Virus record (IMG/VR): IMGVR_UViG_3300027687_000008 | Location: 1-61,489 of that record | DNA from: a virus | Strand: one strand, 5' to 3' | DNA length: 61,489 nucleotides | Part shown: positions 18,481-60,191 of the stretch, one piece after another | Layout: every line of letters starts with the position of its first letter | Position numbering within the stretch: position 1 is the first letter of the stretch | The notes under the pieces: model-generated | Told to the model about the DNA's origin: nothing | Database searches by the model: none | The model's input: the letters and a program-made list of their open reading frames with translations, nothing else | Program-made: the position numbers and the translations under genes

Positions 18481-19320
18481 ATGGCAACATACAGCAGTTA
18501 TAAGAAGATTACTTCGGAAGGAATACCAGATGGATCTATTACTAGATCTAAGCTGACTCCTGGAGCAGGCGCTTGTCGTAGAACACAATGGGTGTTTAAC
18601 GAGCGTGGTATGCAATGCCATATGTGTGCTAGAAATAGTGGCTGTTGTCAACAGGCAAATGGTAGATGTTGTTACTGGTGTGCACCAGACAATGTTTATA
18701 AAGTAACATTTGAAATCTGGGGCGGTGGCGGCGGTGGTCCAGGACACACATGTTGTAACTGTTGTTCTTTTGCTATTGGCGGAGCAGGTGGTAACTATGC
18801 AATACAAACGGTAGATACTCAACCAGGATGTCAATATAGTGTTTGTGCAGGCGGAAGTTGGCCATGTGGTAAGTCACATACTTGTTCAGCGGGCATGGGT
18901 TGTAAATCCTATGTTAACGGAGCCAATCTAAGTAACTTTTGTGTTACTGGTGCATGTGGCGGTTGGATGTGTAATGGAGACGCATGGGGTCAAAGACATG
19001 CTGTATCAAACTGTGCTAACTGTTTAATTTGTGGAATATTTGGTGCTGACTTCGGAATGATGGGCGGCATGGGTATGAAAGCAGGTACAACAACTTGTAG
19101 ATGTCACGGACAAACAGGTTGGTCAGGAGCGGCCGCAGGTATGGGAGTATACGCAGGTACAACTACTAATGAAGCATGGTGTGCTTGTGGATGTCATATT
19201 GTTTGGCCATCAGGTGGCGGAGTTCCTGGAACATCTAGTTACTGTGGTAACTGGGCAAAATGTTGTTCAGGCGGATCAGGTCAAGGCGGATCTGGCATAG
19301 TAAAGATAACGTTTGTATAA
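18481..19320 (+). CDS. Cysteine-rich glycine-rich virion-type protein (copy 1)
   Basis: 279 residues with 31 cysteines (11%), many as CC, CxC or CxxC pairs, in a Gly-rich background. The N-terminal ~30 residues (ATYSSYKKIT...ITRSKL) resemble fibre attachment segments; then GMQCHMCARNSGCC, RCCYWC, HTCCNCC, a GGGGGG run, CKSYVNG, CGIFGADFGMMG, and the end GGSGQGGSGIVKITFV. No signal peptide. Cytoplasmic phage proteins rarely carry so many Cys, so they may bind metal during folding or form disulphides after release. Likely a fibre-tip or adhesin subunit, inferred from position among fibre genes. First of three tandem paralogs. Confidence 0.6.
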   Translation: MATYSSYKKITSEGIPDGSITRSKLTPGAGACRRTQWVFNERGMQCHMCARNSGCCQQANGRCCYWCAPDNVYKVTFEIWGGGGGGPGHTCCNCCSFAIGGAGGNYAIQTVDTQPGCQYSVCAGGSWPCGKSHTCSAGMGCKSYVNGANLSNFCVTGACGGWMCNGDAWGQRHAVSNCANCLICGIFGADFGMMGGMGMKAGTTTCRCHGQTGWSGAAAGMGVYAGTTTNEAWCACGCHIVWPSGGGVPGTSSYCGNWAKCCSGGSGQGGSGIVKITFV

Positions 19321-19332
19321 GGAAAGAAAATA

Positions 19333-20169
19333 ATGGCAACATACGCAAGTTATAAAACATTAACAGCAGACAACTTCCAAGACAATAGTATTACAGCGGC
19401 TAAACTAGGTGCAGGCGCAGGTAACAAATATTGTGTACAATGGGTTTACAATGAACGTGGCATGTATTGTCAAGCATGTTCAGATGCTGGCGACTGTTGC
19501 GAACAAGCAAATGGTAAGTGTTGTTACTGGACAGTTCCAGCTAACACTTCAAAAGTAGTATTCGAAATTTGGTCAGGTGGAGGCGCAGGTGCAGGTGGTA
19601 CTTGTTGTAGTAACTGTCAGTCTTCAGCAGGTGGATCAGGCGGTAACTACGCAGTAAAAACTATTAGTACGTGTCCAGGTTGTACATATTCAGTATGTGC
19701 AGGAGGATCATGGCCTTGCAGTAAATCACATACTTGTGTAGCAGGTATGGGTTGTAAGAGTTATGTAAACGGACACAATTTAAGTAATTTTTGTACAGTA
19801 GGTGGATGTCCAGGTTGGATGTGTAACGGTGGTGCATGGGGACCAAACCACACACAAACATGTGCAAACTGTTTAATTTGCGGAATTTTTGGAGCAGACT
19901 TTGGAATCATGGGATCAACCGGAGTAACAGGCGGACACGGTGGATGTCAATGTAAATCAGCAGACTGGGGAATGTCAGGATCAGCACCTTTTGTAGGTAA
20001 ACATAGTGCAGGTGCAAACGCAGAAGCGTGGTGTAACTGTGCATGTTATGTTAACTGGCCAGCAGGCGGCGGACAAACAGGACAGAGTTCATATTGTGGT
20101 AACTGGGCAAAATGTTGTTCAGGTGGTAATATGGGCGGATCAGGCATGGTAAGAATAACATTCGCATAG
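19333..20169 (+). CDS. Cysteine-rich glycine-rich virion-type protein (copy 2)
   Basis: 278 residues, 30 cysteines. Same order of motifs as copy 1: GMYCQACSDAGDCC, KCCYW, GTCCSNC, CPGCTYSVC, CKSYVNG, CANCLICGIFGADFG, YCGNWAKCC, and GGSGMVRITFA at the end. It differs by losing a Cys in the CCYWT position, gaining one at CPGC, and by a shorter GGAGAG run. Ribosome-binding site is GGAAAG. Together with its neighbours it may form a heterotrimeric tip or alternative receptor-binding subunits. Function inferred; family unknown to me. Confidence 0.6.
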   Translation: MATYASYKTLTADNFQDNSITAAKLGAGAGNKYCVQWVYNERGMYCQACSDAGDCCEQANGKCCYWTVPANTSKVVFEIWSGGGAGAGGTCCSNCQSSAGGSGGNYAVKTISTCPGCTYSVCAGGSWPCSKSHTCVAGMGCKSYVNGHNLSNFCTVGGCPGWMCNGGAWGPNHTQTCANCLICGIFGADFGIMGSTGVTGGHGGCQCKSADWGMSGSAPFVGKHSAGANAEAWCNCACYVNWPAGGGQTGQSSYCGNWAKCCSGGNMGGSGMVRITFA

Positions 20170-20181
20170 TAAGGATAAGAA

Positions 20182-21021
20182 ATGGCAACATACGCAAGTT
20201 ATAAAAAAGTAGCAAATGACAGCATAACAGACGCATCGATTACCTCAGCAGATATTGCTCATGGTAATGGTAACAACATGGGTGTGCAATGGATCTACAA
20301 CGAACGTGGCATGCAATGTCATCAGTGTGCTAGACAATCAGGTTGTTGTCAGCAAGCAAACGGTAGATGTTGTTACTGGTGTGTACCAGATGGTGCAAGT
20401 ACAGTAACATTTGAAGTTTGGTCAGGCGGAGGCGGTGGCCCAGGCCACACTTGTTGTAACTGTTGTTCATTTTCAATTGGTGGCGCAGGTGGCAATTACG
20501 GGTCTAAGACTGTTGCTACAGCTCCAGGATGTCAGTACAGTGTATGTGCTGGTGGCGCTTGGCCATGTGGTAAGTCACACACTTGTGGTGCAAGCATGGG
20601 TTGTAAAAGTTATGTAAACGGATATAACTTATCGAATTTTTGTACAGTAGGCGGCTGTGGTGGTTGGATGTGTAATGGAGACGCATGGGGTCCAAGACAC
20701 ACTCACTTTGGTTGTGAAAACTGTAATATATGCGGAATTTTTGGAGCAGATTTTGGAATGATGGGATCTACAGGATGGGAGCCAGGACATGGTTACTGTC
20801 ACTGTGTATATCAGTATTCAGGATCAGGACAACCTCCATTAATTGGAAAAATGACAGTATCAGTAACTAACGAAGCATGGTGTAACTGCGGTTGCCACAT
20901 TGAGTGGCCAGCAGGTGGCGGAATGCCAGGCGTTAGTTCATATTGTAATAACTGGGCTAAGTGCTGTGCAGGCGGATCTGGACAAGGCGGCTCAGGCGTT
21001 GTTCGAATAACATTCATGTAA
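20182..21021 (+). CDS. Cysteine-rich glycine-rich virion-type protein (copy 3)
   Basis: 279 residues, 30 cysteines, in register with copies 1 and 2 (GMQCHQCARQSGCC, RCCYWC, HTCCNCC, CQYSVC, CKSYVNG, CGIFGADFGMMG, CNNWAKCC). The Cys just before the QW motif present in copies 1 and 2 is replaced here. Regions of copy-to-copy change are the N-terminal 35 residues and residues ~215-240, which would be the place for binding specificity. It is followed by a late promoter box and the chaperone-like gene, which fits a fibre-tip protein with a dedicated assembly factor. Confidence 0.6.
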   Translation: MATYASYKKVANDSITDASITSADIAHGNGNNMGVQWIYNERGMQCHQCARQSGCCQQANGRCCYWCVPDGASTVTFEVWSGGGGGPGHTCCNCCSFSIGGAGGNYGSKTVATAPGCQYSVCAGGAWPCGKSHTCGASMGCKSYVNGYNLSNFCTVGGCGGWMCNGDAWGPRHTHFGCENCNICGIFGADFGMMGSTGWEPGHGYCHCVYQYSGSGQPPLIGKMTVSVTNEAWCNCGCHIEWPAGGGMPGVSSYCNNWAKCCAGGSGQGGSGVVRITFM

Positions 21022-24305: not shown

Positions 24306-26135
24306 ATGACACAGTGGATTGGAGCGATTACAAGAGGACACAACGGCGGCGCCGTATTATTAAAAGATGGCGAAATTGTATTTTCAATTGAAGAAGAACG
24401 TTTAACTCGTAAAAAATACGATGGTGGACCTCTTGCCGCAATGATTAAATTCCTTGAGTACACAGACAAATTAGACTATCTTGTAGTAGCACACACACAA
24501 CCGTTAGCAGAGTCAAGCAGAATTGACTTTAGTGGCGGCGATATGTATACTGGGTTAGCAAGAAAGTTAGGATTAATTGATAGACATGACAATGCTTATA
24601 CAGCAGACGGTCAACATAACCATAGACAAGTTATTGATTTAAGCCACATACACCATAAACTACATGCGGCATGTGCATTTTATCGTTCAGGGTTTGAATC
24701 AGCAGTAAGTGTTATTGTTGACGGAGCAGGAACATTTATTCCTATGAACATTAATATGGGTGTGTTTAATGAAGAATATATGTCATGGGAATGTGAAAGT
24801 ATTTTTAATTGTGCATATCCTGATAACTTTAAAACTTTATATAAGCACCAAGGCGGGAATGGACCGTTTCCAGGAACACGTATTCCGTATATTCCATCAG
24901 ATCGCGAAGGCGAAGAAGGATTCCATGAACTTATATTAGATGATAGTGCAGGTATTGTTAAAGCATACGAAGCAGTAACACAATATTGTGGATTTCAACC
25001 TATTGAAGCTGGTAAAACAATGGGGCTTGCTCCGTATGGTAAGAAAAACTTAAATATTCCTCCAATTTATTCAGACGCTAATGGTAGTAAATGGCGTACA
25101 AGTGATAGAAATGTTATTATTCCAACATATCCAAATGCGGCATTAGTTAATGAAGCAAAATATGAATACTTAGAAACATCACAAGACATAGTTGACAGTA
25201 ATACTGACCTAACTACACAAGAAAACCGTAGAGACTTAGCATATGCAGTACAAGAAGGATCACAACAAGAAGTTTTAAACCTTATCTTTAAAGCAGTTGA
25301 AATGTCAGGTAATAAAAATGTAGTACTAAGTGGCGGCTATGCACTTAACTGTGTTGCAAACTATTGGTATCTTGATAAACTAAACAAAGAAAATATTAAG
25401 TTATATGTTGAACCTGTTAGTAATGATGCAGGTACTGCAATGGGTGCGGCTATGTTAGTGTACCATCAAACTACAAAAGACAAAACTGTACGACACTATG
25501 CAGAAACAATTTATGAAGGATTTGAGTATACATACACCGATGCCCAAATTGAAGAAACTGCAAACAAATATGGTGCTTCTATTGTTGATTCTGACAACGA
25601 AAAAGTTGTAGAACTTATTAGAAACAAAAACATTGTAACATTATTCCAAGGTAAGAGTGAAAACGGCCCTCGTGCATTAGGTAATAGAAGTATATTGTTT
25701 GATCCAACATTTGAAGATGGCAAAGATTACGTAAACAACGTAAAACGTAGAGAATACTTTAGACCTTTTGCAGGAAGTATCATGTTAGAACATGCACATG
25801 AATGGTTTGATATGCGTGGGTTAGAACAAACTCCGCATATGATGTATGCAATGGATTGTCAAGAAGGTATTGCAGAAAAGATTCCAAGCATTATTCACGT
25901 TGATGGTACTTGTAGAATTCAAACTGTAACTAAAGAACAGAACAAACACTACTATGAACTTATTGAAGAGTTTTATAAAAAAACTGGCATTCCAATTATT
26001 TTTAATACTAGTTTTAACTTAGGCGGCGAACCACTTGTTGAAACTTTGGATGATGCTGTACGTACACTATATCTCAGTGAAATGGAATATTGTTACTTAC
26101 CTGAGTACGGCAAACTAATTGAAATGAAAAACTAA
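24306..26135 (+). CDS. Carbamoyltransferase, NodU/CmcH family
   Basis: 609 residues, near the usual family length. It transfers a carbamoyl group from carbamoyl phosphate through carbamoyl-adenylate to a hydroxyl on a sugar or other metabolite. Visible signatures: IEEERLTRKK near the N-terminus; H114-I-H116-H117...H120-A-A (the HH..HA metal-binding motif of the Kae1-like domain); VDGAGT; ETMGLAPYG-type GKTMGLAPYG; LSGGYALNCVAN; VSNDAGTAMGAA; GKSENGPRALGNRSIL; and the C-terminal IFNTSFNLGGEPLV. All key motifs look intact. It shares one base with the next gene. The acceptor may be a glycan made with the neighbouring transferase; this is inference. Confidence 0.92.
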   Translation: MTQWIGAITRGHNGGAVLLKDGEIVFSIEEERLTRKKYDGGPLAAMIKFLEYTDKLDYLVVAHTQPLAESSRIDFSGGDMYTGLARKLGLIDRHDNAYTADGQHNHRQVIDLSHIHHKLHAACAFYRSGFESAVSVIVDGAGTFIPMNINMGVFNEEYMSWECESIFNCAYPDNFKTLYKHQGGNGPFPGTRIPYIPSDREGEEGFHELILDDSAGIVKAYEAVTQYCGFQPIEAGKTMGLAPYGKKNLNIPPIYSDANGSKWRTSDRNVIIPTYPNAALVNEAKYEYLETSQDIVDSNTDLTTQENRRDLAYAVQEGSQQEVLNLIFKAVEMSGNKNVVLSGGYALNCVANYWYLDKLNKENIKLYVEPVSNDAGTAMGAAMLVYHQTTKDKTVRHYAETIYEGFEYTYTDAQIEETANKYGASIVDSDNEKVVELIRNKNIVTLFQGKSENGPRALGNRSILFDPTFEDGKDYVNNVKRREYFRPFAGSIMLEHAHEWFDMRGLEQTPHMMYAMDCQEGIAEKIPSIIHVDGTCRIQTVTKEQNKHYYELIEEFYKKTGIPIIFNTSFNLGGEPLVETLDDAVRTLYLSEMEYCYLPEYGKLIEMKN

Positions 26136-26734
26136 TGCTAGTAAACTTATATTCAATTCCAGTATATAAGATTAAATTACCGGAGCATGAGCAAGTACAA
26201 CAAGACTTTGCTGACATACTTGATAAAGAAGAGTATTTTAGTAGAGTCCCTTCTTGGTATAGTCCTGTAGACACTACTTATGGTAACCCTGAGGCTTCAA
26301 ACTTACCATTTAAAACTTTTATTAGATCAGCAATTACAGGGTTAAACGAATATCTTGAAAATTTTAATATAGACTTAACATTAGACTATAGGATTGAGTG
26401 TTGGCTTAACAAATACAAACCTGGGTCTTACCAAGAAGTACATAATCATGTAGGCGTAGCACAGATTAGTTGTGCATATATGATGCATACTCCTAAAGAC
26501 AGTGGTAACTTTGTATTCTACAACAAAGCATATGATTTTTTACATCAGTCAGGTCTTCCATCATTAACTACACAACCATTCAGATACAATAACAGAGTAA
26601 CACCTCCTTTAGAAGAAGGTGATATTGTATTTTTTCCTAGTAACTTAGAGCATTACGTATCTAATAATACTAGCGACCAATTAAGGTCAACAATTAGTGC
26701 AAATTTTGTGCTATCGGAGAAACAAGATGATTAA
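26135..26734 (+). CDS. 2OG-Fe(II) oxygenase-like protein, TIGR02466-like
   Basis: 199 residues. N-terminus NLYSIPVYKIKLP and the layout (YKPGSYQEVHNHVG, then GDIVFFPSNLEHYV, then RSTISANF) fit the TIGR02466-type putative 2-oxoglutarate/Fe(II) oxygenases common in marine phages. Candidate ligands are H103 or H105, distal H173 and R184. The gene starts in the stop of the carbamoyltransferase (TAATG) and overlaps the next gene by 8 nt, so it is translationally coupled on both sides. Substrate unknown. Confidence 0.65.
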   Translation: MLVNLYSIPVYKIKLPEHEQVQQDFADILDKEEYFSRVPSWYSPVDTTYGNPEASNLPFKTFIRSAITGLNEYLENFNIDLTLDYRIECWLNKYKPGSYQEVHNHVGVAQISCAYMMHTPKDSGNFVFYNKAYDFLHQSGLPSLTTQPFRYNNRVTPPLEEGDIVFFPSNLEHYVSNNTSDQLRSTISANFVLSEKQDD

Positions 26735-27446
26735 AAATACAATTAACGAAGAAGAAGCATTTGCTATCAACGAAAATTTAGATACAAGAGTATATAAGTT
26801 TGGAAAAGCTGGCGTACGAGTATTAGTAGTTGATAATTTTTACCAAAATCCTTATCTAGTAAGACAACTTGCATTAGATATTCCAGCATCTGTTAATAGA
26901 CGAATTAGAGGCGGCAATCCTGCACTACGTATTAATGCATTTTATGAATTATCTGGTATGGCACCTATATATAATAGCCTAGCTAAAGAGTTTTTTCCTG
27001 AAGTGATGCTAAATTGGCCGCATGATTACATGCAAAAAAGTTTTATGAACGCAACGTTTATGATTAATGTTATGCAATCTGAAGACTTGCCACCACTTGC
27101 TCCACACCAAGATAATCGTTCAGGCATGAATCTTGCTAGTACAATTTATCTAAACGACGAAAATGAATCTGCTGGAGGCACAAGTTTTTATGAATTTGGC
27201 GGTAAACATTTTTACACAGATGATGTAGTAAACAATGACTTTAATGTTACTATGGATGTTGAAGGTAAAATTCCAGTAACTAGCTATATTACCGATAGCT
27301 CACATGATTGGGAAATGATTGGAATGATTCCAATGTCGTTTAATAGAATGATATTATATAATCAAGCAGTTTTACATACTGCATATGTTAAACCAGGTAC
27401 GTTTGTAAATAATAACTACAGAATGAATCAGCAGTTTTTTATATAG
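26727..27446 (+). CDS. DUF6445-like 2OG-oxygenase-fold protein
   Basis: 239 residues from the ATG at 26727, chosen over an in-frame ATG at 26697 because CGGAGA lies 6 nt upstream and the longer form would read 38 nt into the previous gene. The centre and end resemble the DUF6445 family, often encoded beside tryptophan-halogenase genes in bacteria: APHQDNRSGMNLASTIYLND, GGTSFYEFGG, ILYNQAVLHTAY. A full facial triad can be placed at H127, D129 and H217, with R232 for 2-oxoglutarate. Adjacent to halogenase and oxygenase genes, as in bacterial halogenase clusters. The reaction is unknown; family naming is from memory of the pattern. Confidence 0.55.
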   Translation: MIKNTINEEEAFAINENLDTRVYKFGKAGVRVLVVDNFYQNPYLVRQLALDIPASVNRRIRGGNPALRINAFYELSGMAPIYNSLAKEFFPEVMLNWPHDYMQKSFMNATFMINVMQSEDLPPLAPHQDNRSGMNLASTIYLNDENESAGGTSFYEFGGKHFYTDDVVNNDFNVTMDVEGKIPVTSYITDSSHDWEMIGMIPMSFNRMILYNQAVLHTAYVKPGTFVNNNYRMNQQFFI

Positions 27447-27455
27447 GAGACTAAT

Positions 27456-28037
27456 ATGGATGATAATTTTGACGGAGTTGAAGTATACGACAACGTATAC
27501 CCAATTGATTATTGTAAACAAATAATTAAAAGGTTTGAAGAGCTATCTTCAATGCAAATGACAGCAATACAACAGCAAGGTATTGACCGTAATCAAGACG
27601 AACGCATATATATGGACTGGGCTAATCATAATAGTCATTATCATGCAGATGAAGACTTATGTAAATTCTTTTTTGAAACTCTTAATAAAACTTATTTAGA
27701 AAAGTATAAAACAAAATACGAAAGCCTTGGATTACTATTCCAGCATACAGCAAAGGGCATGAGTGTTCAAAAAACAAAACCACATCAGGGATATCATGCA
27801 TGGCACTGTGAAAATGCAGATGTACCAACAAGTACTCGAGTGTTAGCATATACATTGTACTTAAATGGAGTTGAAGAAGGCGGTGAAACAGAGTTCTTAT
27901 ACCAAGGACACAAGATTAAACCAGCTCCAGGCAGACTAGCTATCTTTCCTACATCGTTTACACATCCACATCGGGGTAATCCTATCTACAAAGGTGTTAA
28001 GTACATTATAAGCGGATGGTATACTTTAGACCACTAG
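27456..28037 (+). CDS. 2OG-Fe(II) oxygenase, prolyl-hydroxylase-like
   Basis: 193 residues, AGGAG upstream. A clear member of the 2-oxoglutarate/Fe(II) oxygenase superfamily: H117-C-E119 (YHAWHCEN), the strand RVLAYTLYLNG followed by EEGGETEF, PAPGRLAIFP, distal H170 (FTHPHRGNP) and K182 before YIISGW. HxE in place of HxD is allowed in the family. Such proteins are frequent in T4-like marine phages. Placed directly before the halogenase (8-nt gap), so a joint oxidative tailoring role is plausible, though the substrate is not known. Confidence 0.8.
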   Translation: MDDNFDGVEVYDNVYPIDYCKQIIKRFEELSSMQMTAIQQQGIDRNQDERIYMDWANHNSHYHADEDLCKFFFETLNKTYLEKYKTKYESLGLLFQHTAKGMSVQKTKPHQGYHAWHCENADVPTSTRVLAYTLYLNGVEEGGETEFLYQGHKIKPAPGRLAIFPTSFTHPHRGNPIYKGVKYIISGWYTLDH

Positions 28038-28044
28038 GAATAAA

Positions 28045-29502
28045 ATGAAAATAGCAGTAGTAGGTGGCGGCACAGCAGGCTTTGTGTCAGCATTAATTTT
28101 AAAAACAAGTTTCCCAAACTTCCAAATTGACGTAATACGTTCTAGTAAGATTGGAACTATTGGTGTTGGTGAAGGATCTACCGAACATTGGTCTACATTT
28201 ATGGATTTTGTTGGCATTCAAACAGGCCACCTTATTAACGAATGTGATGCTAGTTTTAAATCTGGTATTATGTTTGAAGACTGGAGTGAAACTCCGTACT
28301 TACAAAGTGTCCATGAGCCTTATGTTTCTGAACAACTAGGAGCGCCAATTGCATATGCTAAACTAATTGGCGAAAAAGTAAGTGCAAGAGAACTTACCGG
28401 CGAATACCTTTGGAATAACGAAACACCATTTAACAAGTTTATGGATGAACGCCCAAATGACACTGGTGTAGCACAATATCATTTTAATACTGCTAAATTA
28501 AATGACTTTCTAACAAACTTTGCAATAGACAAAGGCATCAATGTTATCGACGATGAAATTATCAATGTAAGTGTATCAGAAAACAACAATGTGTCAACTA
28601 TACAAGGTGAAAAACAAGTATATGAATACGACTTCTATATAGACTGTACAGGATTTAGTCGTTTACTAATTAACGCAGTAGGTGCCGAATGGCAAAGTTA
28701 TAGTAAGTATCTTAAAATGAAAGAAGCTATTGTATTTCCTACAGCTGAAGAGGATCAAATTCCAATTTGGACATTAGCAAAAGCAATGGACGCTGGTTGG
28801 ATGTTTCGTATTCCTGTTCAAGGACGTACAGGCAATGGTTATATTTTTGATAGCGATTTTATTACAGCTGAACAAGCACATACTGAAGTTGAAAAATACT
28901 TAGGTTACGGAGTCGAAGTAGCAAAGCATATTAAATTTGATCCAGGTACATTAGACAAGGCTTGGATAGGTAACGTATGTGCAATTGGATTAAGTCAAAG
29001 TTTTGTAGAGCCTTTAGAAGCTAGTAGCATTGGTAGTAGTATTAATCAAACATTTTTATTAGCACAACGTCTTATAAATTATAATAAAGAAACAACTAAC
29101 AGATATAATCTTGAAGTTACTGCTATTATGGATAACATTAGAGATTTTATTGCCTTACACTACATTACTAAAAGAAGAGATACACCGTTTTGGAAAGCAG
29201 TATCAGAAACACCAATTCCAGACAGTTTAGATCAAAATTTACGCATGTGGAAAGTAAGAATGCCTATTGCTGACGATTTGACCACGCATACCAAAAAAGT
29301 TTTGTTTAACGAATATAACTATACACTAGTAATGCACGGGTTAGAATTATTTGACACTGATAGTATTTTAAAACAGTACGAATCAATTCCACAAGGTGCA
29401 AAAGATCATGTTGAACAGTCAATACAGCACAAATTAGAATTTGATAAAACAAAAACTATTCCTCACAAATTAATGCTTCAGTTATTACGGAGACTGGTGT
29501 GA
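28045..29502 (+). CDS. Flavin-dependent (tryptophan-type) halogenase, divergent
   Basis: 485 residues. FAD-binding GGGTAG at residues 7-12, then GVGEGSTEHW (40-49) and the conserved catalytic-type lysine K72 in ASFKSGIMFEDW. SQSFVEPLEASSIGSS near residue 320 matches the EPLES region with the active-site Glu. The halogenase signature WxWxIP is changed: residues 252-257 read WMFRIP. This enzyme may have altered or lost halogenase activity, or may act on another substrate. No flavin reductase gene is seen in the window, so reduced FAD would come from the host. The last codons overlap the GTG start of the next gene by 4 nt. Confidence 0.85.
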   Translation: MKIAVVGGGTAGFVSALILKTSFPNFQIDVIRSSKIGTIGVGEGSTEHWSTFMDFVGIQTGHLINECDASFKSGIMFEDWSETPYLQSVHEPYVSEQLGAPIAYAKLIGEKVSARELTGEYLWNNETPFNKFMDERPNDTGVAQYHFNTAKLNDFLTNFAIDKGINVIDDEIINVSVSENNNVSTIQGEKQVYEYDFYIDCTGFSRLLINAVGAEWQSYSKYLKMKEAIVFPTAEEDQIPIWTLAKAMDAGWMFRIPVQGRTGNGYIFDSDFITAEQAHTEVEKYLGYGVEVAKHIKFDPGTLDKAWIGNVCAIGLSQSFVEPLEASSIGSSINQTFLLAQRLINYNKETTNRYNLEVTAIMDNIRDFIALHYITKRRDTPFWKAVSETPIPDSLDQNLRMWKVRMPIADDLTTHTKKVLFNEYNYTLVMHGLELFDTDSILKQYESIPQGAKDHVEQSIQHKLEFDKTKTIPHKLMLQLLRRLV

Positions 29503-30365
29503 GAATATTTGCTTTTGGTTGCAGTTTAACACAGTATTTTTATCCTACTTGGGCTGACATTTTAATACATCATTATAAACAAGAAGGAGCCACAGTTGGA
29601 GAGAACTGGGGACGTAGCGGCGCAGGCAATCAATATATCTCAACAAAATTATGGGAAGCACATACTGAACATAATCTAAACAAAGACGATATTATTTTAT
29701 TACAATGGTCAAGTTTTTTTAGAGAAGATAGATTTCATATGGGCAACGGTTGGCATACTCCTGGAAACTTTAGTAAAGTAACGGTTGGACAAGATATTCC
29801 TTTTGTACTTAATAGCTGGCGTTATGAATCTATGTGGCAATGGGCTGACATGGCCTGGGCTACAATGCGTGACTGTGCATTAATAAGCAGTACACACAAA
29901 GCATTAGAAAGCCTAGGATGTAAAGTTATATCAACTGGATTTAGAGAACCTACTGAAGGTTGGGAAGAACTTAGTAAAGAGTTTAATATTAAAAACAAGT
30001 ATTTAGAACTAGAAGATGTAAGAGCTATAATGGAAAAATATAAAGATGATATTAAAACTACATGCCCACCAATACTTAATGCATTAGGTTTTGGTACTGA
30101 TGATGAATTTTTTAACACAAGACCAACTAGTATACCAGATCCAAATCCAGAACTTTTACACTTACATCAACCCGAAGTACATCCACTTACACACGAAGCG
30201 GCAGACTTTGTGCAAGAACATGTATGCAAATTAAATGACAAAACTTTAGCGTTTGTTGACAAATGGAAGCAAACATTGACAGCTGAAGACTCAATAAAAC
30301 TTTATGAATTAGACTGGTTTAACTCAGAAATACATGGCTGGTCAGACGATAGATGGAGACCTTAA
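29499..30365 (+). CDS. SGNH-hydrolase-like protein
   Basis: 288 residues with a GTG start inside the stop of the halogenase (GTGTGA). The N-terminus AFGCSLTQYFYPTWADIL resembles block I of SGNH/GDSL hydrolases with S9 as nucleophile; NWGRSGAGNQYI would be the block with Gly and Asn; HPLTHEA (about residues 228-234) the C-terminal DxxH-like block. The family removes or transfers acyl groups, for example O-acetyl from glycans. Large part of the chain (residues 60-220) is unfamiliar and Trp-rich. Its position between halogenase and GmhB suggests glycan editing. Assignment is moderate. Confidence 0.6.
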   Translation: MRIFAFGCSLTQYFYPTWADILIHHYKQEGATVGENWGRSGAGNQYISTKLWEAHTEHNLNKDDIILLQWSSFFREDRFHMGNGWHTPGNFSKVTVGQDIPFVLNSWRYESMWQWADMAWATMRDCALISSTHKALESLGCKVISTGFREPTEGWEELSKEFNIKNKYLELEDVRAIMEKYKDDIKTTCPPILNALGFGTDDEFFNTRPTSIPDPNPELLHLHQPEVHPLTHEAADFVQEHVCKLNDKTLAFVDKWKQTLTAEDSIKLYELDWFNSEIHGWSDDRWRP

Positions 30366-30366
30366 G

Positions 30367-30930
30367 ATGAGTACCCCTGTAATAGGACTAGACAGAGATG
30401 GAACAATAAATGTAGACATTGGCACGTATGTAACAAAGCCTGAAGATTTTAAACCCATTGAAGGAAGTTTAGAAGCAGTTAAAATGATTCGTAATAAAGG
30501 ATATGATGTAGTTATTCTTACTAATCAAGCAGGTATTATGAAGGGAATTATGGATCCTGTAGATGTTGACATTGTTAATAATTATATGTTAGAGCTACTT
30601 TGGAAAATAGGGTGTAAAAGTATCAACGGATTGTATTATAGCACATCTAATTTAAAAGACGATGTATATGCCAAACCTAATACAGGTATGTTTAAACGGG
30701 CGGCCTCTGAAATTGGTGTTGACTGGAAGAATGGAGTGTATGTAGGTGACAAAATTAGCGATTTAAAAGCGGCTGTTAAAGCAAAAGCAAAGCCCATACT
30801 AGTGCGTACAGGACATGGTGTTGAAACAGCTAAGAAGTTAAATACGTTTGCTAACAAAGACCTAAAAAACCAAACAGAAACGTTCGATAACCTAAGTCAG
30901 TTTGCTCATAGCTTAGTAGATCTAACTTAA
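30367..30930 (+). CDS. gmhB: D,D-heptose 1,7-bisphosphate 7-phosphatase
   Basis: 187 residues from the ATG at 30367, one base after the previous stop; an in-frame ATG at 30334 would overlap the upstream gene by 32 nt and add an unrelated leader. HAD-family motifs: D9 and D11 in GLDRDGTIN (nucleophile and acid/base), LTNQAGI, AKPNTGM and VGDKISDLKAA. Length and order fit GmhB of the ADP-heptose route, which removes the 7-phosphate between the kinase and adenylyltransferase steps of HldE. Lacks an obvious set of four zinc Cys of classical GmhB (only scattered Cys), so a related histidinol-phosphatase-type HAD is the alternative. HldE and HldD on the minus strand support the heptose reading. Confidence 0.78.
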   Translation: MSTPVIGLDRDGTINVDIGTYVTKPEDFKPIEGSLEAVKMIRNKGYDVVILTNQAGIMKGIMDPVDVDIVNNYMLELLWKIGCKSINGLYYSTSNLKDDVYAKPNTGMFKRAASEIGVDWKNGVYVGDKISDLKAAVKAKAKPILVRTGHGVETAKKLNTFANKDLKNQTETFDNLSQFAHSLVDLT

Positions 30931-31501: not shown

Positions 31502-32980
31502 ATGGCAAAATCAACAATTAACTTAGGTACAGCCGCAAACGACGGTACTGGTGATAATCTTAGAGCAGGTGCTACTAAGGTTAATGCTAACGTCGACGAG
31601 CTGTATAACGCTTTAGGCGACGGAACAAATATTAAAGACATTGTAAATTCAAGTTTAGAACTTGATGTGCAAAATGACGATGCAAAGATTAACAAAATAT
31701 CGTTTCATGCCGCAACGTTAAACCAAATGAATGCAATTAGCACAAGTACATATCATGGTGCAATGCTACACGTACATGAAGGCGGAACAGTTTATGTTGC
31801 ACACTCAAGTGCTTGGCGCAAGATGCTATTAGATGCAAGTGCAGGTGCAATTCCTAACTATACAGACCCGTTAAAACCAATTGCATACATCGGAAATATT
31901 AATAGTTTATCAGATGTTGATACAACTTCACAAGCACCACAAGCTGGCAACGTTCTTAAATGGGACGGAGGCAAATGGGCACCTGGAGTTGACGTATCAT
32001 CAGGCGGATCGGCAGTTGATGCTGGCACCCTTGATGGCTTTGACAGCTCGTACTTTACAAACTACAACAATTTAAACAACAAGCCAACTATTCCAACATC
32101 AATTATTAATTTAAGTATTACAGATGGATCAAGTGGACAAGTTTTATCTGCAAACGGTAACGGAACATTTACTTTCATTACACCAGCGGCCGGCGGCCTA
32201 CAAAACATTTATGCAACTGTCGATGCGGACACAGGTACAACTACTGCAAACGCAACAGCAGATACATTAACACTAGCAGGCGGTACTAATATTACAACTA
32301 GTATTGTTGGCGACACTGTAACATTTAACTATAGTGGTGATGCATTATCAGGAGAAGCTAACCAAAACGCTTTCAGTAACGTACAATCTGATTCAGGAAT
32401 AGCACAAGCTGATAGCACAACTGACACACTAACTATTGCAGGTGGTACAAATATTACTACAGCAGTAACAGGTGATACAGTTACAATTAACGGTACAGTT
32501 CCAACGTTTGCAAGTTTATCAGATACAGATTTAACAGGAGCAACAGCAGGTAACGTACTTGTGTATAACGGAACTAATTGGATAGATAGTCCAAATACAT
32601 ACGATATGATTGCATATCCTGCAATAACACTATTAACTGTAACAGCTGATAGTAATAACGGATATAAGTTTAGTCAATACGGCAACACAGAAGATCCAAC
32701 AATTTATGCTTTGGCAGGAGCAACTATTGCATTTAAAATTAACAGTGGAGCAAATCATCCATTCCAAATTGAAACAAGTGGCGGTTCTGCATATGATAAC
32801 GGACTTGTTCATGTTGCATTAGACGGAACAGAATCAACAGGTTCATCAGCACAAGGTAAAGTAAGTGGAACATTATATTGGCAAGTACCAGCTAACATTA
32901 GCGGCAACTATCAATATCAGTGTACAATACATAGCTCGATGCAAGGTACTATTGTAGTTAAAGCATTAAGTGCAATCTAA
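31502..32980 (+). CDS. Fibre-like virion protein with C-terminal cupredoxin domain
   Basis: 492 residues. N-terminus INLGTAANDGTGDNLRAGATKVNANVDELY is a frequent attachment segment of marine phage fibres. Middle: linker NYNNLNNKPTIPTSI and repeats ATADTLTLAGGTNITTSIVGD / STTDTLTIAGGTNITTAVTGD. Residues ~370-490 look like a blue-copper (type I) domain: H419 in NHPFQI, then C474-x2-H477-x2-M480 in YQCTIHSSM, followed by GTIVV. This Cys-His-Met spacing is that of amicyanin. With no signal peptide, the domain would be copper-loaded in the cytoplasm or after release. It may serve as a stable fold on the virion or bind metal. Confidence 0.7.
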   Translation: MAKSTINLGTAANDGTGDNLRAGATKVNANVDELYNALGDGTNIKDIVNSSLELDVQNDDAKINKISFHAATLNQMNAISTSTYHGAMLHVHEGGTVYVAHSSAWRKMLLDASAGAIPNYTDPLKPIAYIGNINSLSDVDTTSQAPQAGNVLKWDGGKWAPGVDVSSGGSAVDAGTLDGFDSSYFTNYNNLNNKPTIPTSIINLSITDGSSGQVLSANGNGTFTFITPAAGGLQNIYATVDADTGTTTANATADTLTLAGGTNITTSIVGDTVTFNYSGDALSGEANQNAFSNVQSDSGIAQADSTTDTLTIAGGTNITTAVTGDTVTINGTVPTFASLSDTDLTGATAGNVLVYNGTNWIDSPNTYDMIAYPAITLLTVTADSNNGYKFSQYGNTEDPTIYALAGATIAFKINSGANHPFQIETSGGSAYDNGLVHVALDGTESTGSSAQGKVSGTLYWQVPANISGNYQYQCTIHSSMQGTIVVKALSAI

Positions 32981-58610: not shown

Positions 58611-60191
58611 ATGAGTACTTCACTAGATGGCGTCTTAATCAAAAAGGCGAATAAAACAGAAACATATACAGATGCACAAATTGAGGATCTTGCTAAATGC
58701 ATGGATCCAATTACAGGGTATCTATATTTTGCAAAGAAATTTGCATTTATTCAGCATCCTGTTCAAGGTAAATTGTTATTTGATCCATTTTCTTACCAAG
58801 TAAGATTATTGAAAAGTTATCACGATCATAGATTTAACGTAAACATGTTGCCTAGACAAACAGGTAAAACTACTACTGCCGCAATATACCTAGCATGGTA
58901 TGCAATGTTTTTTGCAGATCAAACTGTACTAATTGCCGCACACAAATACACAGGCGCACAAGAAATTATGCAACGTATACGTTATGTGTATGAAAGTTGT
59001 CCTGATCATATTAGAGCAGGTGTTACAAACTACAATAAAGGCTCAATGGAATTTGAAAACGGTTCGCGTATTGTTAGTGCAACTACAACAGGTAACACAG
59101 GACGTGGTATGAGTATCTCGTTACTATACTGTGATGAGTTTGCATTTGTTAATCCTAATATTGCAGAAGAGTTTTGGACTTCAATATCTCCTACACTAGC
59201 AACAGGTGGTCGTGCTATTATTACATCAACACCTAACTCGGACGAAGATACGTTTGCTGTTATTTGGAAACAATCACAAGACAAATACGATACACATGGT
59301 AATGAGCAAGAAGTAGGTGTAAACGGATTTCACGGATTTACATGTACTTGGGATGAACATCCTGACAGAGATGAAGCATGGAAAGTTGCTGAGATTGGAC
59401 GTATTGGCGAAGAAAAGTTTAGACGTGAGTATGGTTGTGAGTTTTTAGTATACGACGAAACACTTATTAATAGTATTCATTTATCAACTATGGAAGCACA
59501 AAATCCCTTAATGAATATGGGCCAAACACGTTGGTACGGAACTCCTACAGGCGATCAAAACTATGCTGTTGCACTAGACCCTGCAATGGGTACAGGTGGT
59601 GACTATGCCGCAATACAAGTTTATGAATTACCAAGTTATAAACAGATTGCAGAATGGAGACATAATGAAACTCCTATACCTGCCCAAATTAGAATACTGA
59701 GAGATATTTGTACACACATACTAGACTGTTGCAAAACAACAGGTAGTAACATTTATTGGAGTGTTGAGAATAACTCAATTGGTGAAGCCGCACTTATTGT
59801 TATTAACGATTTTGGTGAAGAAAATATACCCGGGCTATTTGTAAGTGAACCTATGCGTAAAGGACATGTACGCAAGTTCCGCAAAGGGTTTAATACTACA
59901 CATGGTACTAAGATTACAGCATGTAGTCGTTTGAAAACTATGATTGAAAATAAGAAGATAACTATTAATAGTGGCCCATTAATTACAGAACTAAAAAATT
60001 ATGTTGCTACAGGCACTAGTTTTAGAGCAAAGCCAGGAGCCAATGATGACTTAGTTAGTGCTACACTATTAGCACTAAGAATGATGGCAGTTTTAAAAGA
60101 CTGGGATCCACGTATATATAATACCTTTACACAAGCTGAAGGAGAGGAGCAATACGAACCGCCGATGCCAATATTTGTTAGCGGTTATTGA
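58611..60191 (+). CDS. gp17: Terminase large subunit gp17
   Basis: 526 residues (T4 610). ATPase: Walker A LPRQTGKTT near residues 80-88, Walker B SLLYCDEFAFV with D175-E176, and the coupling motif TSTPN. RNase H-like nuclease: D323 in ALDPAMGTGGDYAA, the acidic VENNSIG strand, and D in GANDDLVSATLLALRMM. It drives ATP-fuelled packaging and cuts concatemeric DNA at the portal. It lies after gp16 by four genes, a strong terminator and its own late box. Confidence 0.95.
   Translation: MSTSLDGVLIKKANKTETYTDAQIEDLAKCMDPITGYLYFAKKFAFIQHPVQGKLLFDPFSYQVRLLKSYHDHRFNVNMLPRQTGKTTTAAIYLAWYAMFFADQTVLIAAHKYTGAQEIMQRIRYVYESCPDHIRAGVTNYNKGSMEFENGSRIVSATTTGNTGRGMSISLLYCDEFAFVNPNIAEEFWTSISPTLATGGRAIITSTPNSDEDTFAVIWKQSQDKYDTHGNEQEVGVNGFHGFTCTWDEHPDRDEAWKVAEIGRIGEEKFRREYGCEFLVYDETLINSIHLSTMEAQNPLMNMGQTRWYGTPTGDQNYAVALDPAMGTGGDYAAIQVYELPSYKQIAEWRHNETPIPAQIRILRDICTHILDCCKTTGSNIYWSVENNSIGEAALIVINDFGEENIPGLFVSEPMRKGHVRKFRKGFNTTHGTKITACSRLKTMIENKKITINSGPLITELKNYVATGTSFRAKPGANDDLVSATLLALRMMAVLKDWDPRIYNTFTQAEGEEQYEPPMPIFVSGY

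What the first reader, a model, noticed from the sequence alone, without database searches (positions are those of the whole stretch)
32610..32977. Cupredoxin (blue-copper) domain on a tail protein
The last ~120 residues of the 492-residue fibre-like protein carry H419, C474-x2-H477-x2-M480 in a beta-sandwich pattern with YxYxC and GTIVV, the ligand spacing of amicyanin. A type I copper site on a virion would be unexpected; it could bind scarce copper, act in electron transfer at the host surface, or mimic a host electron carrier to find its receptor.
Basis: partly seen in the sequence, partly recalled or inferred. Interest (0 to 1): 0.66.

Follow-up and report, generated by a model that had tools for sequence, protein, structure and literature searches.

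The report
Copper-protein domain on marine phage tails
A baseplate/tail-fibre protein of this marine phage ends in a small domain built like the blue copper proteins that carry electrons in cells, and because the four predicted copper-holding residues are kept in almost every one of the many relatives found on tails of marine phages, these virus particles very probably carry copper, which seems not to have been reported.

Summary
ORF 31502-32980 (492 aa) is a gp9/gp10-like baseplate protein (PHROG 677). Residues ~370-487 form a cupredoxin domain with H419 and C474-x2-H477-x2-M480, the amicyanin ligand spacing. AlphaFold2 models the domain at pLDDT 93.7, and the 50 best PDB matches are all copper cupredoxins. 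Sequence libraries miss it (Pfam Copper-bind 16.9 bits against a cut-off of 21.2).

In two scans whose queries lacked the C/H/M loop, 125 of 126 evaluable distinct copies kept H...C-x2-H-x2-M and the other has one extra loop residue, while the median domain column is only 46% conserved. The same domain sits on gp9 of about 290 cyanophage records, on proximal tail-fibre proteins, inside giant structural proteins, and on a podovirus tail protein. It is distinct from the phage-borne plastocyanin PetE. I found no paper describing it.

Best reading: a mobile, copper-stabilised docking or adhesion module on tail proteins, probably loaded with copper after lysis. Copper binding itself and any electron-transfer or receptor role remain untested. 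The host is unknown; the phage is not a standard cyanophage (terminase nearest PA5oct).

The parts
31502..32980 (+). gp9/gp10-like baseplate wedge / tail-fibre connector protein, 492 aa, bearing the cupredoxin domain
   Evidence: PHROG 677 E=1.8e-94; PF07880 E=8.9e-10
31508..31960 (+). T4 gp9/gp10 N-terminal homology (residues 3-153; the strongest part, residues 3-42, matches T4 gp10 2-41)
32609..32962 (+). cupredoxin domain, residues ~370-487
   Evidence: profile hit E=4e-45; AF2 pLDDT 93.7; Foldseek PDB hits all copper cupredoxins
32756..32758 (+). predicted copper ligand His419 (HPF motif)
   Evidence: 152 of 152 aligned relatives
32921..32923 (+). predicted copper ligand Cys474
   Evidence: 150 of 150
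32930..32932 (+). predicted copper ligand His477
   Evidence: 150 of 150
32939..32941 (+). predicted axial copper ligand Met480
   Evidence: 150 of 150

Best explanation
The C-terminal ~118 residues of a gp9/gp10-like baseplate protein form a cupredoxin domain with an intact type-1 (blue) copper site (His419, Cys474, His477, Met480). It is one copy of a mobile module used on peripheral tail and baseplate proteins of marine tailed phages. Most likely it works as a rigid, metal-stabilised docking or adhesion domain at the tail periphery. The apo-protein would fold and assemble in the copper-poor cytoplasm, and the high-affinity site would pick up Cu from lysate or seawater. Bound Cu would lock the ligand loop and so the exposed end of the domain, which contacts another tail part or the host surface. 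Shown by sequence and prediction: fold, ligand set, ligand conservation, mobility across virion proteins. Inferred: copper occupancy, timing of loading, structural/docking role.
For: AF2 pLDDT 93.7, pTM 0.86 for the domain. The 50 best PDB fold matches are all copper cupredoxins: rusticyanin, amicyanin, plastocyanin, nitrite reductase, laccases. In the model's secondary structure the ligand loop joins the last two strands and His419 precedes the next strand, as in amicyanin. Ligand-blind scans: 125 of 126 evaluable distinct copies have H...C-x2-H-x2-M, and the ligand columns are among the most conserved of the domain (median column 46%; the two apparent misses run off contig ends). Ligand codons vary synonymously (CAT 177/CAC 82; TGT 175/TGC 84), so the residues are held by selection. 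Same ligands in 21 of 22 cyanophage proteins of different architecture. Tail/baseplate context: PHROG 677, PF07880, T4 gp10. Fold matches on proximal tail fibres and other virion proteins.
Against: No metal has been measured. Sequence similarity to known copper proteins is below every curated cut-off (Pfam 16.9 of 21.2 bits; NCBIfam amicyanin 15.6 of 110.2). Query-normalised TM-scores to PDB hits are modest (0.35-0.50). A few copies have a changed ligand loop (S-SKS1, L134, L142, L056) or no ligands at all (L162, L208). The full-length model is poor (pLDDT 41), so exposure at a tail tip is not shown.
Confidence: 0.55

Rival explanations
1. Receptor targeting through copper: the copper-loaded tip is recognised by a host copper- or metal-uptake surface protein, a copper version of the Trojan-horse (iron) proposal for phage tails.
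For: Conserved metal site on tail proteins; iron-binding HxH motifs on phage fibres are already proposed to act this way (PMC11705849); the window protein also carries a conserved H90-x-H92.
Against: The module is placed near the N-terminus or internally in several proteins (P-GSP1, MED4-213, Sf-CH5), not only at distal tips; no receptor known; host of this phage unknown.
Confidence: 0.15
2. Redox or electron-transfer role: the site cycles Cu(I)/Cu(II) at the host surface, or senses redox state to trigger a conformational change in the baseplate.
For: The ligand set is that of electron-transfer cupredoxins.
Against: No electron-transfer partner; the domain is not closely related to the phages' own PetE, which scores 67-78 bits with PF00127 where the virion domain scores below the cut-off or not at all.
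Confidence: 0.1
3. The four residues are kept for folding or for another metal (e.g. Zn), and the domain is a generic beta-sandwich decoration without copper.
For: Two copies without any ligands exist (L162, L208); no copper assay exists; a weak Pfam match to the At5g54830-like domain in two copies.
Against: Cys+2His+Met with conserved 7-residue loop length in a cupredoxin fold is the type-1 copper signature (established knowledge); near-invariance in more than 120 ligand-blind copies.
Confidence: 0.15
4. Captured host plastocyanin (auxiliary metabolic gene) fused by chance to a tail gene.
For: Cyanophages carry petE (PMC3037559).
Against: The petE products are separate 116-134 aa open frames at other positions in the same genomes with strong PF00127 scores; the virion domain is a separate lineage found in hundreds of viral contigs.
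Confidence: 0.03

Closest known systems
Amicyanin / plastocyanin-type cupredoxins (type-1 copper)
   Same: Fold by AF2 and Foldseek; His...Cys-x2-His-x2-Met with amicyanin loop length; GxYxYxCTxHxxMxGxxVV ligand strand and loop
   Different: Domain of a virion protein, with a longer insert between the His and Cys ligands (55 residues here) and sequence scores below the curated cut-offs; no known redox partner
Cyanophage gp9 'baseplate wedge tail fibre connector' (PHROG 677)
   Same: Same architecture: gp9/10-type N-terminus and the same C-terminal domain; ligands conserved
   Different: The annotations do not mention the cupredoxin; the window phage is not a standard cyanophage (terminase nearest PA5oct-like jumbo phages)
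T4 gp9 and gp10
   Same: N-terminal attachment region, residues 3-42
   Different: The C-terminal cupredoxin was not found in any enterobacterial T4-like record
Iron-binding HxH motifs of T4 gp37 and marine phage fibres
   Same: Metal-binding residues on tail proteins
   Different: Different metal site and fold; here a mononuclear Cys/His/His/Met site within one domain
PetE plastocyanin carried by cyanophages
   Same: Cupredoxin superfamily
   Different: Separate small protein with strong PF00127 scores; the virion domain is a different lineage

Membership tests
Type-1 copper cupredoxins (superfamily) | Greek-key beta-sandwich cupredoxin fold | tested here: met
   AF2 pLDDT 93.7; top 50 PDB Foldseek hits all copper cupredoxins, best E=1.8e-6
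Type-1 copper cupredoxins (superfamily) | Two His, one Cys, one (usually Met) axial ligand, the last three in the loop between the last two strands | tested here: met
   H419; C474, H477, M480 between strands 468-474 and 481-487; conserved in relatives
Type-1 copper cupredoxins (superfamily) | Ligands converge geometrically and bind Cu with a ~600 nm band | not testable with these tools
   Model coordinates not released; no experiment
Pfam PF00127 Copper-bind | Score at or above the gathering cut-off (21.2 bits) | tested here: not met
   16.9 bits for the domain alone, 13.1 for the whole protein; a sub-threshold match in 30 of 34 members, best E 0.0013
Amicyanin (NCBIfam TIGR02657, equivalog) | Score at or above the cut-off (110.2 bits) | tested here: not met
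   15.6 bits, residues 462-486 only
PHROG 677 / T4 gp9-gp10 type baseplate protein | gp9/10 N-terminal region and PHROG 677 profile | tested here: met
   PF07880 39.3 bits (cut-off 25); PHROG 677 E=1.8e-94
PHROG 677 / T4 gp9-gp10 type baseplate protein | Presence in the purified virion | not tested
   Virion proteomes of S-SM1, Syn9 and S-PM2 exist (PMC3037559) but their tables could not be read here
Cyanophage PetE plastocyanin | Strong PF00127 match, small stand-alone protein | tested here: not met
   PetE open frames score 67-78 bits in the same genomes; the virion domain is part of a 492-aa protein and below the cut-off

The most novel reading that the evidence does not exclude
Most abundant marine T4-like phages, and some other tailed phages, are copper metalloparticles: each baseplate carries an array of type-1 copper sites, loaded from lysate or seawater after release, and copper occupancy governs adsorption or baseplate triggering, which would link ocean copper to infection.
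Probability: 0.2. Interest if true: 0.85.

Novelty: new variant of a known kind. Interest (0 to 1): 0.62.

Why it matters
Fold and ligand conservation predict that the tails of very common marine phages carry blue-copper sites, a property seemingly missed because the domain falls below the library cut-offs. It is directly testable on existing cyanophage isolates (Syn9, S-SM1, P-RSM4) by metal analysis and spectroscopy. It would extend the idea of metals in phage tails from iron to copper, raise the question of how a cytoplasmically assembled particle gets copper, and offer a possible handle on the poorly understood adsorption of cyanophages.

Tried and rejected
Sequence-only homology to solved copper proteins is inconclusive (best PDB E=0.19 for the single sequence, 0.031 for the profile); the fold search settled it. 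Full-length structure prediction was uninformative (pLDDT 41). Captured PetE was considered and rejected. A cyanophage host for this window was considered: no psbA in nine long relatives and a terminase nearest PA5oct, so the host is left open. Literature searches for a cupredoxin, plastocyanin or type-1 copper on phage tails found no description. The 80 loci were found with a pattern that contains the C/H/M motif, so they are not used as conservation evidence.

Full report
WHAT IS THERE. The ORF at 31502-32980 encodes 492 residues. One small ORF separates it from a 1975-residue virion structural protein downstream (PHROG 5838). It is therefore a peripheral baseplate protein of a contractile-tailed phage.

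FOLD. An alignment of 34 relatives from viral contigs (A1) gave an AlphaFold2 model of residues 352-492 at mean pLDDT 93.7, pTM 0.86. The 50 best PDB matches are all copper cupredoxins: rusticyanin (E=1.8e-6), nitrite reductase, laccases, amicyanin, plastocyanin. Query-normalised TM-scores are modest (0.35-0.50); the target-normalised value for plastocyanin 2plt is 0.60. The C/H/M ligands lie in the loop between the last two strands, and H419 lies just before a strand, as in amicyanin. Coordinates are not released to the session, so ligand distances could not be measured. Sequence libraries alone would miss the domain: Pfam Copper-bind gives 16.9 bits against a cut-off of 21.2 and NCBIfam amicyanin 15.6 against 110.2.

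LIGAND CONSERVATION. Scans seeded partly with the C/H motif gave 103 of 104 copies with C-x2-H-x2-M. To avoid circularity I ran two scans with queries cut before the C/H/M loop. Of 128 distinct copies, 125 have H...C-x2-H-x2-M, one has C-x2-H-x3-M, and two run off their contig ends. In the alignment of these with the cyanophage copies (152 rows), His419 is 152/152 and Cys474, His477 and Met480 are 150/150, against a median column conservation of 46%. The ligand codons vary synonymously, so the residues are held by purifying selection. In 22 annotated cyanophage proteins found by tblastn, 21 hold the exact motif. In a wider set of 179 distinct near-full copies (many found with the motif, so biased) 173 keep it, four have an altered loop length, and two, both internal copies in long proteins (L162, L208), have lost it.

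DISTRIBUTION. tblastn finds the domain in 287 phage records at E<=0.01, nearly all Synechococcus and Prochlorococcus phages, mostly as the C-terminus of gp9. It also lies near the N-terminus of a tail protein of the T7-like podovirus P-GSP1, twice inside 1777-1778-residue proteins of MED4-213 and P-HM1, near the N-terminus of a 1197-residue tail fibre of Sf-CH5, and in a collagen-like P-SSM5 protein. BFVD fold matches include proximal long-tail-fibre subunits (P-SSM2, S-SCSM1) and a virion structural protein of S-TIM5. A scan of 84,980 prokaryote genomes with a related pattern gave only four loci. By their gene content three look like phage (one is a gp9 of the cyanophage type) and one is a collagen-like protein of a Bacteroidetes MAG. 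The patterns used in the two collections were not identical, so the contrast is indicative. The module is distinct from PetE, which appears as separate small open frames with strong PF00127 scores in the same cyanophages.

THE PHAGE. The terminase is nearest PA5oct-like jumbo phages (54%), and relatives of the protein lie on contigs of up to 261,806 bases. No psbA was found in nine long relatives. The host is unknown; a standard T4-like cyanophage is unlikely, although the gp9-type gene is shared with them.

MECHANISM. Shown: cupredoxin fold (predicted), complete ligand set, strong selection on the ligands, placement on virion-type proteins, mobility between them. Inferred: copper binding. A type-1 site has very high copper affinity and the cytoplasm holds almost no free copper (established knowledge), so the particle is probably loaded after lysis. 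The varied placement (C-terminal, internal, near-N-terminal, two copies in one protein) suits a stable docking or adhesion module whose metal fixes its exposed ligand loop, more than an electron carrier with a dedicated partner. A role in receptor targeting, like that proposed for iron-binding HxH motifs (PMC11705849), is possible. Back-of-envelope, from knowledge and not measured here: with T4-like stoichiometry of about 18 copies of gp9 per baseplate, 10^6 such virions per ml would bind about 3e-14 M copper, trivial against total dissolved copper, so any effect would be on the phage itself, not on the copper budget.

NOVELTY. I found no paper in the held library that describes a cupredoxin or type-1 copper site on a phage tail; subscription papers and preprints are not covered. 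Both the fold and the gp9 family are known; their combination on virions, its abundance and its conserved copper ligands appear undescribed. I rate it a new variant of a known kind.

Noticed in passing
window 31769-31777: The same protein carries H90-V-H92 (HxH), kept in every full-length close relative of the clade checked (HVH or HNH) but absent from most cyanophage gp9 proteins. HxH is the motif proposed to bind iron in trimeric phage fibres, so one protein may hold two metal sites.
   Followed up: partly
window 24306-30365: Cluster of metabolic-type genes inside the structural region: carbamoyltransferase, 2OG-Fe(II) oxygenases, DUF6445, tryptophan halogenase (E=2.8e-97), then an unassigned ORF; a HAD-type phosphatase gene follows at 30334-30930.
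   Followed up: no
window 58611-60191: Terminase large subunit closest to PA5oct-like Pseudomonas jumbo phages (54%), although the baseplate genes match cyanophage families.
   Followed up: partly
window 18481-21021: Three consecutive ORFs of 279, 278 and 279 aa in a row, possibly tandem paralogues; the first matches PHROG 4205.
   Followed up: no
L076 (S-SKS1), L134, L142, L056: Variant ligand loops: CTTGGHGGM in S-SKS1 and L134, C-x2-H-x3-M in L142 and L056; these could test how loop length tunes the site.
   Followed up: no
L162 and L208: Internal copies of the domain with no Cys/His/Met ligands, candidates for natural apo-versions.
   Followed up: no
L133:2948-5971: A Bacteroidetes MAG protein of about 1007 aa combines collagen-like repeats with the same domain and ligands: the only likely cellular copy found.
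   Followed up: partly
contigs of L025, L037, L110: A second, weaker copy of the domain lies in a ~5000-residue open frame in these relatives.
   Followed up: no
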